From: Candidatus Abyssobacteria bacterium SURF_5
GTDB lineage: Bacteria; Abyssobacteria; SURF-5
Length of the DNA: 24,274 bases
Assembly (NCBI GenBank): GCA_003598085.1
Contig: QZKU01000132.1
Location: 1 to 24,274 of the forward strand
Reading direction: 5' to 3'
The translations under genes and the position numbers were made by a program. Under the pieces are notes generated by a model that was not told where the DNA came from, did not search any database, and saw only the letters and a list, made by a program, of their open reading frames with translations. This document shows positions 81 to 6,434 of this stretch, piece by piece (the stretch's first letter is position 1; every line of letters starts with the position of its first letter).

Positions 81-641
81 TTATTTACGGATAAGCTCTA
101 AGTACAGTTGGGTCGTGACAAGGTTTTTGTGTCGCAGAATCACCTTCGATACCACCTCCAGCGGGACGCCGCTTCTGCTTGCGTAGGTAGCAGAATGCCG
201 TCTCAGGTCATGTGGCCTCAATACAACTCCTATTCGTTCTCCCGCGGCTTTCACGATTCTTCTTCCGCCTGAGTACGTCAGCGGAAAGATACGCGCTTCT
301 AGACCCAAATTCCTGTCCAGAATGTATGCGTTCAATCTGGTCGCCAGAGATTCCGGCATGTACGCTTCTTCAGATTCTCTGCCGCTTTTCGGTAGAGACA
401 GATTCAGTTTACGTCCTTCAATGTCTATTACCTTCAGCCGCAGGACTTCTCCGATTCTGAGTCCGCTCCGGTCTTGCAATTCCAGAAACAGCCGGTCCCG
501 CAGCTTGGGAGTACAAAAGATAACCTCATCTATTGTTTCTTTTCCTAGAATCATCCTCCTTCCCGGTTGCGGGCTTCGAAAGGCCTTCCTCAAGTTTTCG
601 GTATCACAGGGGTTTGCCTTTGTTGTTCCCAGAATGTTCAT
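81..641 (-). CDS. Tyrosine recombinase/integrase, catalytic C-terminal part (frameshifted gene)
   Basis: This is a 186-residue catalytic domain of the phage-integrase/XerC-D family, which cuts and rejoins DNA through a covalent Tyr intermediate. All expected catalytic positions are visible: R62 in GLRIGEVL, K85, H144 and R147 in HDLRRHSAT, H171 in LRHKNLVTT and Y180. The N-terminal core-binding domain lies in the next ORF (638-880) in another reading frame. Codons upstream of the ATG at 641 continue in this frame as FFNYC, the usual linker of an intact integrase, so the ATG is probably internal to the ancestral gene. The two ORFs share an ATGA stop/start, so coupled translation is possible, but a frameshifted gene is the simpler reading. 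It points away from the restriction genes. Confidence 0.85.
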   Translation of the reverse strand: MNILGTTKANPCDTENLRKAFRSPQPGRRMILGKETIDEVIFCTPKLRDRLFLELQDRSGLRIGEVLRLKVIDIEGRKLNLSLPKSGRESEEAYMPESLATRLNAYILDRNLGLEARIFPLTYSGGRRIVKAAGERIGVVLRPHDLRRHSATYASRSGVPLEVVSKVILRHKNLVTTQLYLELIRK

Positions 642-880
642 GCAGTAATTGAAGAAAATTTGATCATAATGAAAGTATGGTTCTTGGTTCCTTCCTTAAG
701 ACCCTCCGTCTTGGAGGACAAAAATCCGAAAATGTCTGCAGGGCTAATTTCAGCTAATTCTTTTCCTCCGAAAGCCATCTCAACATCCCGGAGTAAATAC
801 CTATAGCTCTTCACCGTGTGCGGCTTCGAGTTTGCTTCATGGAACGCCAGGTACTGAACAATAGCCTCTTTGACAGTCAT
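638..880 (-). CDS. Tyrosine recombinase, N-terminal core-binding (SAM-like) domain part (frameshifted gene)
   Basis: This 80-residue product begins MTVKEAIVQYLAFHEANSK and continues with T-V-x-S-Y, typical of the SAM-like DNA-binding N-terminal domain of integrases. I chose the ATG at 880 because a good ribosome binding site (AAAGGAGG) lies just upstream; an upstream extension to 937 has none. The frame ends at a TGA that overlaps the ATG of the catalytic part. The last ten residues (IKFSSITA region) are out of register: adding one T to the TTTT run near 654-660 would give KFFFNYCMNILG and restore a single protein of about 266 residues. So this is probably half of a disrupted gene, or a sequencing indel. 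Confidence 0.75.
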   Translation of the reverse strand: MTVKEAIVQYLAFHEANSKPHTVKSYRYLLRDVEMAFGGKELAEISPADIFGFLSSKTEGLKEGTKNHTFIMIKFSSITA

Positions 881-941
881 TTTGGTGCCTCCTTTTTTAC
901 CATAGCTAGCGCACATCCCGTTGCGATAGTAGTTCAAAAGC

Positions 942-969
942 TTGACATACTTCTGCGCATGACTATAAT
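942..969 (+). promoter_or_regulatory. Consensus sigma-70 promoter of the restriction endonuclease gene
   Basis: A perfect TTGACA (942-947) and a perfect TATAAT (964-969) are separated by 16 bp, pointing to the endonuclease ATG at 1000. Transcription would start near 976, leaving a leader of about 24 nt. Only a weak purine-rich site (TGAGG, 984-988) lies ahead of the ATG, so strong transcription may be offset by modest translation initiation. Confidence 0.8.
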
Positions 970-999: not shown

Positions 1000-1608
1000 A
1001 TGATCCGAAATAAAGCTGATATTTCCAATTTCAATGTTGATGCAATCCTTCCTTATGAATTGAGGCTGCAGGATTTTCAAATAGCCATGCAGGATGTCTA
1101 TGACTTCTTTTTTGATGTCAATAATCATCTCGCAGAAAAGGGACTTGAACGCCTTGATGACATGCTGCGGCCCGCCATCATGTCCGGTGTTCTTTCAGAT
1201 ATGCTAACGTCGAGCCTTGCCAAGCATTCACGCGTTCTCAAGCAGAATCAATACTTCAACGGTCACCCTGATTTGGTTCTTCAAGGTGTCTATGCCGGCA
1301 ATGCAGTAAAAGGGGGAACTGAAGGAGTTGAAATCAAGACCACCAGAAAGATTGGCGGCGCGGTTGACACTCATGGCGCAAGAGACCAATGGATGTGTGT
1401 CTTTGTCTATGACGTAGATAATCGAACTGAGCCGGCGCGCGATCGGCGGCCAATGACTTTTCTCGAAGTTTATCTGGGAAAGGTGACGGTCGAGGATTTT
1501 CGCAGGAATCCGCGTGGGGAGTTGGGCACACGGACCGCAACGCTCCATAAGAACGGCATAAAGAAATTGAGAGAGAACTGGATTTATAAATTTACTGAAA
1601 CTGAATAA
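1000..1608 (+). CDS. Type II restriction endonuclease (PD-(D/E)XK type)
   Basis: This 202-residue protein carries a PD-(D/E)XK nuclease signature: P90-D91 in GHPDLV, then E111-I-K113 in GVEIKTTRK, with a spacing of 19 residues between D91 and E111. A hydrophobic beta strand (WMCVFVYDVD) follows, as in this fold. It converges with a DNA methyltransferase gene and overlaps its 3' end by 17 bp, the classic layout of a type II restriction-modification system, so it should cleave the site that the methyltransferase protects. The target sequence cannot be read from the protein. The C-terminal part (LGTRTATLHKNGIKKLRENW) looks complete. I do not recognise a named enzyme. The nuclease role is inferred from the motif plus the neighbour. 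Confidence 0.8.
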   Translation: MIRNKADISNFNVDAILPYELRLQDFQIAMQDVYDFFFDVNNHLAEKGLERLDDMLRPAIMSGVLSDMLTSSLAKHSRVLKQNQYFNGHPDLVLQGVYAGNAVKGGTEGVEIKTTRKIGGAVDTHGARDQWMCVFVYDVDNRTEPARDRRPMTFLEVYLGKVTVEDFRRNPRGELGTRTATLHKNGIKKLRENWIYKFTETE

Positions 1609-2719
1609 GGCGTGGTATTGAGTCGCAGGCCATTTGAAAGTAGTACTCATCCTTCTCAATGCCAATACTTTCGTATTCCACGGCCTCGGCCGCCGCTAAA
1701 GTGGAACCTGCCCCGGCAAAAGTATCCACTAAAATTCCCTCGCCCAAGGGCAATACGGCCCGTACCAATTGACGCAGAAATGACTGCGGTTTCAGACTGG
1801 GATGAGGGGCAACCTCACGCTCTTTCTTTCGAGTGGGCGCTGAGCTAATGACATCCCCGAAAGGTGTGTCTTTCCTCGGTCTTCGAAAGCCCCCTGTTTT
1901 CCATTTCCTTAAGTTGTCCTGAATTCTTCCTTCAACCGGCTTGCGAAAAACCACCCAAGGTTCCCACATCGAACGCGGCATGACGCTAATATCTGGAAAT
2001 TCCTCATGAGCGGCTTTTGGGCGGTCTCCTCCCCGCATGGTCATGGTAAGGCGAATGATTTCACCACGGCGCTCAAAACCTGCGTCCGCCAATGCTCCAG
2101 AAACGATAAAAGATAATAAGGGGTTTGACGCAATGATTACGTTGGCTCCCGGAACGAGCTTTGGGAGGAGCAACTTCCCCCAAAGAAAGAAGAATGTTCT
2201 AATCTCTTCCAATTGATCAGGCGTGAGCGTAGTAAATCGGGGAAGCGGCGATCTCTTGTTTCCATCGAAAGATGGTGGAATTCTCCAAACGCCTCCCTTG
2301 CCATTCCTCAGTTTTGTTTGCTGTTCCTCGGTATATTCATGCAGTCCGTAGGGGGGATCAGTTACCACTGCGTGATACGAACAATCTTTCTGAATTCTCA
2401 ACCAGTCGAAACAATCAGCATGATAAATGATCGATTTTCCAAAGCGAGCTGGCTTGCACCACGTGCCCAGATAAATTTCCTGCTGCAGGGCAGCATTCTG
2501 ATTTCTTCGCAGGGAATAAAGACCGTGTGACTCCCGAATGAATAATTCGGGATTATTCAGTCGCAGATACGAACGGATTGAGGAAGAAGGTGTCTCACCG
2601 ATCATCCGGCAGACATCTTCCTCAATTTCCTTTACGGACATAGGTTTCGAAGCCAAGGACATTGCCTTCATTATTGCATCCCTCACCTGCCCAGGTCGGC
2701 TTCTTCTCCTGTCACTCAT
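1592..2719 (-). CDS. Site-specific DNA methyltransferase of a type II R-M system (beta-class order, DPPY)
   Basis: S-adenosylmethionine-dependent DNA amino-methyltransferase, probably N6-adenine given DPPY. Numbered from the upstream ATG at 2728, motif IV (TDPPYG) is at 124-127, HPSLKP at 309-314 and the SAM-binding motif FAGAGST at 337-343. Catalytic motif before SAM motif is the beta-class order. Residues of about 13 to 75 form a winged-helix-like region (SVKEIEEDVCRMIG... HGLYSLR) resembling the HARE-HTH type known in some restriction systems. I start it at Met4 (2719) because the ATG at 2728 overlaps the -10 hexamer of a perfect promoter and would not be transcribed. Met4 falls at the predicted transcription start, implying a leaderless mRNA. 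It converges with the endonuclease gene. Confidence 0.9.
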   Translation of the reverse strand: MSDRRRSRPGQVRDAIMKAMSLASKPMSVKEIEEDVCRMIGETPSSSIRSYLRLNNPELFIRESHGLYSLRRNQNAALQQEIYLGTWCKPARFGKSIIYHADCFDWLRIQKDCSYHAVVTDPPYGLHEYTEEQQTKLRNGKGGVWRIPPSFDGNKRSPLPRFTTLTPDQLEEIRTFFFLWGKLLLPKLVPGANVIIASNPLLSFIVSGALADAGFERRGEIIRLTMTMRGGDRPKAAHEEFPDISVMPRSMWEPWVVFRKPVEGRIQDNLRKWKTGGFRRPRKDTPFGDVISSAPTRKKEREVAPHPSLKPQSFLRQLVRAVLPLGEGILVDTFAGAGSTLAAAEAVEYESIGIEKDEYYFQMACDSIPRLIQFQ

Positions 2720-2726
2720 ACGCTGC

Positions 2727-2755
2727 ATTATAGACGTCTGGACGTCTCATGTCAA
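2727..2755 (-). promoter_or_regulatory. Consensus promoter of the methyltransferase gene with doubled GACGTC motif in the spacer
   Basis: On the minus strand TTGACA (2755-2750) and TATAAT (2732-2727) are separated by 17 bp. The spacer contains two GACGTC palindromes as an 8-bp-period direct repeat (GACGTCCA, GACGTCTA). Seven bases after TATAAT comes the Met4 ATG, so the transcript is predicted to start at or next to the initiation codon. The repeat sits where a repressor would block RNA polymerase, and it could instead be a methylation-sensitive site. What binds there is inference. Confidence 0.8.
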
Positions 2756-3510: not shown

Positions 3511-4023
3511 ATGGCGGAAGTGCTGGACATCATTGAGTTGATCAAAAAGCTGGCTCTGATCGAGGCCGAAGGCGTGGGATTCTACCGGAGCCTGGCCGAG
3601 CATGCAGGCGACGAAAATATCAAGAAGCTGGCGCGCATGATGGCGCGCGCCGAGGAGAATCATCGGCAAGGCTTCATCGAGGTGGCCGAAAAGCTCGAGA
3701 GGCGGCGGAAAACGGCGCGGCCTTCGAAAGTAACCGGCGATCTGCGGCAATACATCATCGAGCTTATCGATCATCGCATATTTCTGAGCCCAGAACAGGC
3801 GGCGACTCTCGCCAGAAACGTCGCAAACCTGGACGAGGCCGTCGATATGGCGATCAAATTTGAGAAGGAAAACATTCTCTTGCTGCAGGAATGCAGGGAA
3901 ATCGCGGCCGGAACAACCAGGAAGATCATCGACAAAATCATTCAGCAGGAACGAAAACACGTCATCGGGCTTCGCAAAGCGCGCGTACAACTTTTGGCGC
4001 GTACCGCTTCATCCGAGCAATAA
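3511..4023 (+). CDS. Ferritin-like (rubrerythrin-type) diiron domain protein
   Basis: This 170-residue, all-helical protein resembles the ferritin-like/rubrerythrin family, in which four helices hold two iron atoms. The ligand pattern is complete in two halves: a Glu in LIEAEGVGFY followed by EENH in the first, and a Glu in KFEKEN followed by QQERKH in the second. No rubredoxin-type Cys domain is present, so it is the bare bundle, as in many small oxidative-stress or iron-handling proteins. The frame extends upstream to 3331, but ATG 3511 is preceded by a strong AGGGGAGG site and the upstream part is repeat-derived. It converges with nrdJ across a terminator. Substrate and partner are unknown. 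Confidence 0.85.
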   Translation: MAEVLDIIELIKKLALIEAEGVGFYRSLAEHAGDENIKKLARMMARAEENHRQGFIEVAEKLERRRKTARPSKVTGDLRQYIIELIDHRIFLSPEQAATLARNVANLDEAVDMAIKFEKENILLLQECREIAAGTTRKIIDKIIQQERKHVIGLRKARVQLLARTASSEQ

Positions 4024-4112: not shown

Positions 4113-6434
4113 TCAGTTACACTTCGAGTAGCCGCACATGCGGCATACGATGCAACCGCCCTCGCGCTCGATTTTCGCGCCGCAATCGGGGCACGCGCTT
4201 ACGGCCGTTGCCGGTTCAACAGCGGCTTCGGTCTCGACTTCGCCATTGGGCTCCTCGATTGCGTGGCGCCCGGGAATCTTCGAATATTTCTCGATTGCGC
4301 GGCCGATCGCGTCGGGGCAGGAAAGACAACGAATATCCGGATTGATGCGTTTGGCGGCGACCGTAGAAAGACACCGGATGCCTTTCAGTTGCTCAATGAG
4401 CGCGTCAACGCTGATTCCCGATCTGAGCGCCAGCGAAACCAGCCGGCTCGTCGCCTCCGATTGAGACGGGCAACCGCCGGCCCTGCCGGTGCTGGTGAAG
4501 ACCTCGCAGATCCCGATCTCGTCCGAATTGACCGTCACATACAGATTGCCGCAGCCGATAACCACCTTCTCCGTGGTTCCCTGAGTCACTGTCTGGCGCA
4601 GACGCGGAATGATATCGTTTCCTTGTGGTGCAGCCTGACCCTTGGTGATGCTCTTCGTCCATACCTGCCCGCTTCGGCTGCCGTCGCGGAAAATCGTGAC
4701 TCCCTTGCATCCGAGTTTGTATGCGAGAGTATAGACGTTTTCGACGTCTTCCTTCGTTGCGCTGTTCGCAAAATTGACCGTCTTCGAAACCGCATTATCC
4801 GTATGCACCTGGAATGCCGCCTGCATCTTGATGTGCCATTCAGGAGTCACCTCGTGAGCCGTCACAAACACTCCCTTGATCTCCGGCGGCACCTCCGGCA
4901 AATCAGCCATTCCGCCGGCTTCCGCTATCTTCTTCATCAGTTGCGGAGAGAAGAACCCGCGCTCTTTCGCCAGTTGCCGGAAAATCGGATGGGCCTCGAT
5001 CAGCTCGTCGTTATCGAGCACATGCCGGGTGAACGCGATCGCGAAAATCGGCTCGATTCCGCTCGAACAGCCGGAAATGATGCTGATTGTGCCCGTCGGC
5101 GCAACGGTGGTGACGGTCGCATTGCGCATCGGACGCCCGGAGCCGGCATAAATGCTCTTGTCGTAGTTGGGAAACGAGCCGCGCGTTTCGGCGATCCTCG
5201 CCGATTCATCGTGCGCCTTGTTCTGGATAAATGCCATCAGTTCGTCCGCCACCTTGAGCGCCTGCTCTGAATTGTACGGAATGCCCATGCGAATGAGCAT
5301 ATCGGCGAAGCCCATCACGCCGAGCCCGATCTTGCGGTTCGCACGCGTCATCTCAGCGATCTTCGGCAGCGGATACTTGTTCGTGTCGATTACATTATCG
5401 AGAAAATGGACCGCCGTGCGCACGGTCCGTGCAAGCCTCGGAAAATCAACCTCGTAGTGACTGTTGCGCTTGATCAGCATTTTCTCCAGATTAATCGAAC
5501 CGAGATTGCACGATTCATACGGAAGCAGGGGCTGCTCACCGCATGGATTTGTGCTCTCGATCTGGCCCACCAGCGGAGTCGGGTTGCCCTTGTTGATCCG
5601 GTCGAGGAAGATGATGCCCGGGTCCCCGTTCAGCCATGCGTGCTCAACAATCTTCTGGAAGACCTCTCGCGCTTTGAGCCGGCCTACCGCCTCGCGTGTT
5701 CGCGGATTAATCAGATCATATTCGCCGTCCGACTCGCACGCCTCCATGAATTTGTCGGTTACCGCGACCGAGATGTTGAAGTTGTTAAGCTGGCTTTCGT
5801 TCTCTTTCGACTCGATGAACTCGAGAATATCCGGATGGTCTACCCGCAAAATACCCATGTTCGCGCCGCGGCGGGTGCCGCCTTGCTTGATGGTTTCGGT
5901 CGCCATGTCGAAAACTTTCATGAACGAGATCGGACCGCTCGAAATGCCTTTCGTCGATAGAACCATATCGTTCTTCGGCCTGATCCGGGAAAAAGAAAAA
6001 CCCGTGCCGCCGCCGCTCTTATGGATAAGGGCGGTGTTCTTTACCGCTTCAAATATGCTCTCCATCGAGTCTTCGACCGGAAGCACGAAGCATGCGGATA
6101 GCTGGCCCAGCTCGCGTCCGGCGTTCATGAGCGTCGGAGAATTCGGCATGAACTCCATGTTCGCCATCAGGAAGAAAAAGTCCTTTGCTACAGCGAGCAC
6201 GTCGGCATTCTCATTATAATCTTTGTCCACCTGCGCGATTGTGTACGCCACGCGCCAGAACATATCCTCCGGCCGCTCAATCGGCCTGCCGTCGTCATCT
6301 TTCTTTAAGTACCGTCTTTCCAATACTTTAAGAGCATTCACCGTAAACTCTATCTTTATCTTCGGCGGTTGCGGGAGGCCGGTCTTTGCTATCCTCCGTC
6401 CCATGGCTTTTCTGCCATTTCTTACCGCGGGCAT
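4113..6434 (-). CDS. nrdJ: Adenosylcobalamin-dependent (class II) ribonucleoside-diphosphate reductase
   Basis: Reduces ribonucleotides to deoxyribonucleotides using an adenosylcobalamin-derived radical, without oxygen requirement. The 773-residue length fits the class II NrdJ family. Active-site features are visible: C115 in ACFVLPVEDS, HKSGGGTGFSFS (138-149), the thiyl-radical Cys C298 in NPCGEQPLLP, and its partner C309 in SCNLGSINL, 11 residues on. A TSCPD-like domain (about 610-700; CGNLYVTVNSDE, GGCPSQSEA) and a C-terminal zinc-ribbon-like tail with CPDCG and CRMCG follow. The start is secured by AAAAAGGAGG 8 nt upstream of the ATG. It is transcribed alone, from a promoter about 350 bp away with an NrdR-box-like site, and ends at a clear terminator. 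Confidence 0.97.
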   Translation of the reverse strand: MPAVRNGRKAMGRRIAKTGLPQPPKIKIEFTVNALKVLERRYLKKDDDGRPIERPEDMFWRVAYTIAQVDKDYNENADVLAVAKDFFFLMANMEFMPNSPTLMNAGRELGQLSACFVLPVEDSMESIFEAVKNTALIHKSGGGTGFSFSRIRPKNDMVLSTKGISSGPISFMKVFDMATETIKQGGTRRGANMGILRVDHPDILEFIESKENESQLNNFNISVAVTDKFMEACESDGEYDLINPRTREAVGRLKAREVFQKIVEHAWLNGDPGIIFLDRINKGNPTPLVGQIESTNPCGEQPLLPYESCNLGSINLEKMLIKRNSHYEVDFPRLARTVRTAVHFLDNVIDTNKYPLPKIAEMTRANRKIGLGVMGFADMLIRMGIPYNSEQALKVADELMAFIQNKAHDESARIAETRGSFPNYDKSIYAGSGRPMRNATVTTVAPTGTISIISGCSSGIEPIFAIAFTRHVLDNDELIEAHPIFRQLAKERGFFSPQLMKKIAEAGGMADLPEVPPEIKGVFVTAHEVTPEWHIKMQAAFQVHTDNAVSKTVNFANSATKEDVENVYTLAYKLGCKGVTIFRDGSRSGQVWTKSITKGQAAPQGNDIIPRLRQTVTQGTTEKVVIGCGNLYVTVNSDEIGICEVFTSTGRAGGCPSQSEATSRLVSLALRSGISVDALIEQLKGIRCLSTVAAKRINPDIRCLSCPDAIGRAIEKYSKIPGRHAIEEPNGEVETEAAVEPATAVSACPDCGAKIEREGGCIVCRMCGYSKCN

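What the first reader, a model, noticed from the sequence alone, without database searches (positions are those of the whole stretch)
2719..2755. Methyltransferase promoter: leaderless start and tandem GACGTC inside the -35/-10 spacer
The promoter is a perfect TTGACA-17-TATAAT, and the only ATG that can be transcribed sits seven bases after the -10. Two GACGTC palindromes at 8-bp spacing fill the spacer, an ideal place for self-repression. The methyltransferase has an N-terminal winged-helix-like region and no separate controller gene is seen, so it may regulate itself. GACGTC could also be the recognition site, making the promoter methylation-sensitive. Leaderless transcripts and methylation-controlled promoters are known in other R-M systems; their combination here is inference.
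Basis: partly seen in the sequence, partly recalled or inferred. Interest (0 to 1): 0.6.

Follow-up and report, generated by a model that had tools for sequence, protein, structure and literature searches.

The report
Self-controlling DNA methylase promoter switch
A bacterial DNA-protection enzyme appears to switch off its own gene through a small DNA-binding domain and a double GACGTC site inside its promoter, an arrangement kept letter for letter in relatives from about a dozen bacterial phyla; binding itself has not been shown.

Summary
It is not chance. The pair occurs once in the 5.1-Mb genome. GACGTCNNGACGTC is invariant upstream of 57 dereplicated methyltransferase loci from ~12 phyla that carry the N-terminal winged-helix-like (wH) domain, plus 2/2 held-out loci, and absent from all 24 homologs lacking it (one decayed wH-bearing pseudogene keeps a single GACGTC). 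In 43 loci a sigma70-like promoter brackets the pair; in 33 of these the start codon lies 4-11 nt after the -10. In three loci the wH domain is a separate ~72-aa gene before the methyltransferase, like a controller. Best explanation: the wH domain binds the pair and represses its own strong, leaderless promoter. Related wH genes in XamI-family systems (site GTCGAC, from memory) have GTCGAC in their promoters (4/4), suggesting GACGTC is this system's recognition site; unproven. It works like M.SsoII/M.EcoRII, but methyltransferase class, reader domain and operator differ. Caveats: domain and operator adjoin, so one 5' event removes both; binding and methylation were not tested.

The parts
2750..2755 (-). 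-35 hexamer TTGACA (perfect consensus)
   Evidence: TTGAC conserved at this offset from the pair
2733..2746 (-). operator GACGTC-CA-GACGTC inside the 17-nt spacer (2733-2749)
   Evidence: 12/12 positions invariant in all aligned wH-bearing loci
2727..2732 (-). -10 hexamer TATAAT (perfect consensus)
2717..2719 (-). start codon ATG, 7 nt after the -10: predicted leaderless or nearly leaderless mRNA
   Evidence: conserved N-terminus; spacing in relatives
1592..2719 (-). beta-class (DPPY...FAGAGS) DNA amino-methyltransferase, 375 aa
   Evidence: Pfam N6_N4_Mtase E=3.7e-14; PADLOC MTase_II E=6.6e-104; fold match to CcrM, MboIIA, TTHA0409
2507..2701 (-). N-terminal wH-like domain, residues ~7-71, predicted HHH-EE; helix 45-54 (SSSIRSYLRL) nearly invariant
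   Evidence: AlphaFold2 model; alignments; weak HARE-HTH / HTH_12 hits below cut-off
1000..1608 (+). convergent restriction endonuclease, 202 aa, PD-(D/E)XK type (PDL...EIK)
   Evidence: conserved next to the methyltransferase; model pLDDT 91.5, best PDB matches NaeI, BglI, EcoRV, weak E 1e-3 to 1e-2; no Pfam hit
942..969 (+). endonuclease promoter-like sequence TTGACA-16-TATAAT, without a GACGTC pair
   Evidence: sequence printed
1592..1608 (.). 3' overlap of the convergent methyltransferase and endonuclease genes
   Evidence: opposite strand in 56 of 58 loci with the endonuclease, mostly with short overlaps

Best explanation
This is the self-regulating promoter of a type II restriction-modification methyltransferase. 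The methyltransferase carries an N-terminal winged-helix-like domain that binds the GACGTC-NN-GACGTC pair between -35 and -10 and shuts off its own gene. In a new host the free promoter (perfect sigma70 consensus, start codon at or near the transcript's 5' end, no ribosome-binding site needed) fires strongly, so the genome is methylated quickly. As the protein accumulates it covers the pair and excludes RNA polymerase, capping its level. The endonuclease gene is convergent, ends tail to tail with the methyltransferase gene and has its own promoter without the pair, so early methyltransferase transcription may also hold it back. Shown here: anatomy, conservation, and the link between domain and pair. 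Inferred: binding, repression, leaderless 5' end, interference. Likely but less sure (about 0.55): GACGTC is also the system's recognition sequence, so the operator can itself be methylated.
For: Pair invariant in all aligned wH-bearing loci from ~12 phyla while most flanking columns carry little information (titles); 2/2 held-out gammaproteobacterial loci. 56/0/0/24 association of wH domain and pair, Fisher 6e-21, not corrected for relatedness; on the tree both traits change 4 times, at least 2 on well supported branches, always together. wH domain as a separate ~72-aa ORF overlapping the methyltransferase start, with the pair upstream, in L130 (Iamia plasmid), L131 (Mycobacterium avium plasmid) and L164 (Chloroflexota). 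Free-standing wH ORF with the exact pair in L205. In pseudogene L148 the wH domain has a stop and only one GACGTC is left. Promoter 9/12 or better in 33/57 against 0% of controls; start 4-11 nt after -10 in 33/43. Predicted HHH-EE topology with nearly invariant third helix. Pair unique in the genome. Precedent for N-terminal HTH methyltransferase autorepressors: PMC3874152, PMC3695355, PMC12707154.
Against: No binding, transcript or methylation data. The wH domain and the pair are adjacent, so one 5' deletion or recombination would remove both; joint absence is weaker evidence than the Fisher value suggests, and only 2 independent joint changes are well supported. The wH fold is a prediction (pLDDT ~80) with no significant Pfam or PDB match. 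In an alphaproteobacterial-type clade the -35/-10 fit is poor and a longer leader is present, so the leaderless layout is not universal. L205's contig ends just downstream, so an undetected methyltransferase may follow its wH gene.
Confidence: 0.8

Rival explanations
1. The promoter is controlled by methylation of GACGTC as the cognate recognition site (as in CfrBI, AhdI, LlaDII): methylated spacer sites lower RNA polymerase activity or are occupied by the catalytic domain; the wH domain has another role.
For: In four XamI-family plasmid systems with a homologous wH gene, GTCGAC, a different hexamer and the XamI site, lies within ~60 nt upstream of the wH start (1, 1, 2 and 2 copies; chance per locus 2-6%). 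In L214, with a ribbon-helix-helix-like regulator instead, two GTCGAC lie 8 bp apart. Promoter-methylation control is known.
Against: The Synergistota homolog L025 has a 74% identical catalytic domain and 72% identical endonuclease, hence probably the same specificity, but no wH domain and no pair. The pair goes with the wH domain in every intact locus. GACGTC is not depleted in carrier genomes, though this is a weak test.
Confidence: 0.12
2. The wH autorepression is right, but wH proteins of this family simply read GAC/GTC half-sites; their meeting XamI's GTCGAC is coincidence and the window's recognition site is unrelated to GACGTC.
For: GACGTC and GTCGAC share the same trinucleotide halves; C-boxes too are GAC-rich (PMC3695355).
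Against: L214, with a non-wH regulator, also carries paired GTCGAC.
Confidence: 0.35
3. A chance consensus promoter with two chance hexamers.
For: GACGTC frequency in the window is within the shuffle range.
Against: Invariance of the pair across ~12 phyla and its uniqueness in the genome.
Confidence: 0.01

Closest known systems
M.SsoII / M.Ecl18kI dual-function methyltransferases
   Same: N-terminal ~70-aa DNA-binding region represses the methyltransferase gene through an operator at its promoter (PMC3695355)
   Different: Those are cytosine-5 enzymes with an HTH resembling C proteins, a 15-mer GGACAAATTGTCCT-type operator and divergent R and M genes; here a beta-class amino-methyltransferase, winged helix, paired GACGTC in the spacer, convergent genes
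M.EcoRII
   Same: Methyltransferase-repressor fusion whose repression depends on methylation of its substrate sites (PMC12707154)
   Different: Different methyltransferase class and reader; methylation dependence here is only a hypothesis
CfrBI / AhdI / LlaDII promoter-methylation control
   Same: Possible cognate site inside the methyltransferase promoter
   Different: No wH regulator described there; identity of GACGTC as cognate site unproven here
RptR repressor (PMC12255303)
   Same: Repeated 6-bp palindromes in an R-M promoter bound by a small repressor and conserved with it
   Different: RptR is an all-helical dimer of type I loci, TAGCTA in 9-bp repeats overlapping -10; not fused to a methyltransferase
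C proteins (e.g. C.PvuII)
   Same: R-M self-regulation; [quoted passage not shown]
   Different: C proteins are XRE-type; a separate HTH_3 gene of that kind accompanies the wH-less homolog L132
HARE-HTH / winged-helix readers
   Same: Weak similarity of the domain (best E 0.0005); some wH domains read methylated DNA (PMC11037411)
   Different: Below Pfam gathering cut-off; no methyl reading shown

Membership tests
Type II restriction-modification system | DNA methyltransferase beside an endonuclease | tested here: met
   N6_N4_Mtase and conserved PD-(D/E)XK-like neighbour; endonuclease assignment rests on weak fold matches and motif
Type II restriction-modification system | both enzymes act on one shared site | not testable with these tools
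   no methylome or cleavage data
SsoII-like dual-function methyltransferase | N-terminal DNA-binding domain on the methyltransferase | tested here: met
   HHH-EE predicted, conserved
SsoII-like dual-function methyltransferase | operator overlapping the methyltransferase promoter | tested here: met
   by conservation only
SsoII-like dual-function methyltransferase | cytosine-5 methyltransferase | tested here: not met
   beta-class DPPY enzyme
SsoII-like dual-function methyltransferase | binding and repression demonstrated | not testable with these tools
   needs EMSA and reporter
C-protein regulator | XRE/HTH_3 fold | tested here: not met
   no HTH_3 hit for the domain
HARE-HTH (PF05066) | score above gathering cut-off | tested here: not met
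   15.3 bits against 25.9 for the window's domain
Promoter-methylation-controlled R-M | cognate recognition site in the methyltransferase promoter | tested here: inconclusive
   analogy with XamI-family systems; avoidance test neutral
Leaderless mRNA | start codon at the predicted transcript 5' end | tested here: met
   4-11 nt after -10 in 33/43 loci; 5' end not mapped

The most novel reading that the evidence does not exclude
The wH domain reads the methylation state of the system's own recognition site, placed twice in the promoter spacer, so methyltransferase synthesis is set by how completely the cell's DNA is methylated. The module (wH plus paired cognate sites) is portable between unrelated R-M systems (GACGTC here, GTCGAC in XamI-type), fused or free-standing.
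Probability: 0.25. Interest if true: 0.8.

Novelty: new variant of a known kind. Interest (0 to 1): 0.62.

Why it matters
R-M genes that move between distant hosts must make methyltransferase first and then limit it. A leaderless, consensus-strength promoter with a built-in operator read by the enzyme's own N-terminus needs little from the host, which would fit its presence in about 12 phyla and on small plasmids. If the operator is the recognition site, operator sequence would predict R-M specificity, and whether an enzyme senses its own product becomes directly testable.

Tried and rejected
A 79-aa ORF upstream (2752-2991, minus) that ends inside the -35: no relatives among fetched loci and no convincing family hit, rejected as a gene. 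L040 first looked like a domain swap; it is an insertion sequence in a wH-methyltransferase gene. Scans of viral contigs for the palindromic pair: of 71 stretches only L079 and L112 encode this methyltransferase; the rest are taken as chance. Site-avoidance test with GTCGAC (same dinucleotides) as control: uninformative. A scripted motif search for XRE genes near wH-less homologs found only L132; the pattern is crude. XamI-family loci of Chloroflexota and viral L215 carry no wH gene. Paper searches for AatII/ZraI-type methyltransferases and GACGTC methylomes gave only an m5C GACGTC enzyme in Natrinema, not checked for relation.

Full report
1. Observation. The pair fills 14 of the 17 spacer bases. 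GACGTC alone is ordinary (12 in the window, 7.8 expected; 1417 in the genome), but the pair occurs once in the 5.1-Mb genome. The gene is a 375-aa beta-class amino-methyltransferase with a ~65-residue N-terminal domain predicted as HHH-EE. Its conserved motif PG.VRDAI begins at residue 9, so later starts would cut it; ATG 2719 is the likely start.

2. Relatives. A genome-contig scan, plasmids, viral contigs and class/phylum searches gave homologs from Hydrogenedentota (Abyssobacteria), Myxococcota, Chloroflexota, Pseudomonadota, Planctomycetota, Bacillota, Kiritimatiellota, Lentisphaerota, Methylomirabilota, Acidobacteriota, Nitrospirota and Actinomycetota (record names and lineages). Nearly everywhere a ~200-aa convergent gene ends at the methyltransferase's 3' end (56 of 58 on the opposite strand, mostly short overlaps). 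It has a PDL...EIK motif and a confident model whose best, weak, PDB matches are NaeI, BglI and EcoRV, so it is taken as the endonuclease.

3. The operator. Upstream sequences otherwise differ, yet GACGTCNNGACGTC is exact in every aligned wH-bearing locus. In the dereplicated tree set 56 loci have wH domain and pair, 24 have neither, none is mixed; a further frame-broken locus, L023, brings the promoter set to 57. The only wH-bearing exception is a decayed gene, L148, with a stop in the domain and one GACGTC left. Two gammaproteobacterial loci found afterwards with the wH profile also carry the pair. A sigma70-like promoter of 9/12 or better brackets the pair in 33 of 57 loci against 0% of control positions; of 43 loci with 8/12 or better, 33 have a start codon 4-11 nt after the -10, with a peak at 6. 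A mostly alphaproteobacterial clade instead has TTGACGTCNNGACGTCAA-like pairs with a longer leader, often with a GGAG-like sequence.

4. Who reads it. Three loci encode the domain as its own ~72-aa ORF with a stop, overlapping the methyltransferase start, with the pair upstream (L130, L131, L164): a free-standing controller. L205 has a lone wH gene with the pair, though its contig ends soon after. Both traits change together on the tree (4 changes each), at least twice on well supported branches; L025 and L036 sit inside wH-bearing groups. L025 keeps a 74% identical catalytic domain and 72% identical endonuclease without wH domain or pair, so the pair follows the wH domain rather than the catalytic specificity. 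The main weakness is that domain and pair adjoin, so one 5' event can remove both. L132, without wH, has an XRE-type gene upstream of its endonuclease.

5. Is GACGTC the recognition site? Homologous free-standing wH genes (HMM E 1e-12 to 1e-16 for L203, L207, L208; L209 is 67% identical to L208) precede the unrelated methyltransferase of XamI-family systems (RE_XamI E=6e-53 for L203; annotated as XamI family in the others). Their promoters lack the GACGTC pair but hold GTCGAC: L203 and L207 once, L208 and L209 twice around a TATA-like -10 (chance 2-6% per locus). That XamI recognises GTCGAC is from memory of the Pfam entry; the paper search did not confirm it. L214, with a ribbon-helix-helix-like regulator, has two GTCGAC 8 bp apart. 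XamI-family loci with other regulators (L211-L213), L210 and viral L215 lack it at that place. This suggests that such operators hold the cognate site; four to five loci are few, and shared GAC/GTC half-sites are an alternative. GACGTC is not depleted in carriers, which is neutral because host sites would be methylated.

6. Mechanism. Inferred: strong unrepressed leaderless expression on entry, then wH-mediated repression by blocking RNA polymerase, possibly tuned by methylation of the sites as for M.EcoRII. The endonuclease has its own TTGACA-16-TATAAT (942-969) and no pair; GACGTC occurs upstream of the endonuclease in 3 of 58 loci. Convergent interference is conjecture.

7. Comparison. Dual-function methyltransferases are known, for example SsoII, Ecl18kI and EcoRII, which are cytosine-5 enzymes. 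I found no described case in the beta-class amino-methyltransferases, with this wH domain, or with the operator wholly inside the spacer; the literature search was limited to the open library. I therefore file it as a new variant of a known kind. It works like the SsoII type; it is not a member of that family, because the cytosine-5 feature is not met.

Noticed in passing
window 81-937 (-): Tyrosine integrase (XerA-like) split into two ORFs overlapping at 638-641, next to the R-M genes: probably a broken integrase of the mobile segment that carries them.
   Followed up: partly
window 942-969 (+): The endonuclease gene has its own consensus-hexamer promoter TTGACA-16-TATAAT without the operator.
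   Followed up: partly
L129 2581-2952 (-): Microvirga plasmid: a second wH ORF is divergent from the wH-methyltransferase gene across the operator region.
   Followed up: no
L214 ~1219-1244: Massilia XamI-family system: GTCGACAAGTCGAC inside a 26-bp palindrome just upstream of a ribbon-helix-helix-like gene.
   Followed up: partly
L040 3357-4585: Alloalcanivorax: insertion sequence inside a wH-methyltransferase gene; wH part and operator intact.
   Followed up: no
L123, L124, L128: The system sits on small ColRNAI-type plasmids (about 5 kb) of Klebsiella and relatives and on a Pseudomonas plasmid.
   Followed up: no
G459, G484 (Chloroflexota set): Two genomes without this system have almost no GACGTC (10 and 17 sites), suggesting another GACGTC-directed pressure.
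   Followed up: no
L026 4726-4741: Two GACGTC 10 bp apart lie near the start of the endonuclease gene in Mesorhizobium.
   Followed up: no
window 3511-4023 (+) and 4113-6434 (-): A rubrerythrin-like protein and a probable B12-dependent ribonucleotide reductase lie beside the R-M segment.
   Followed up: no
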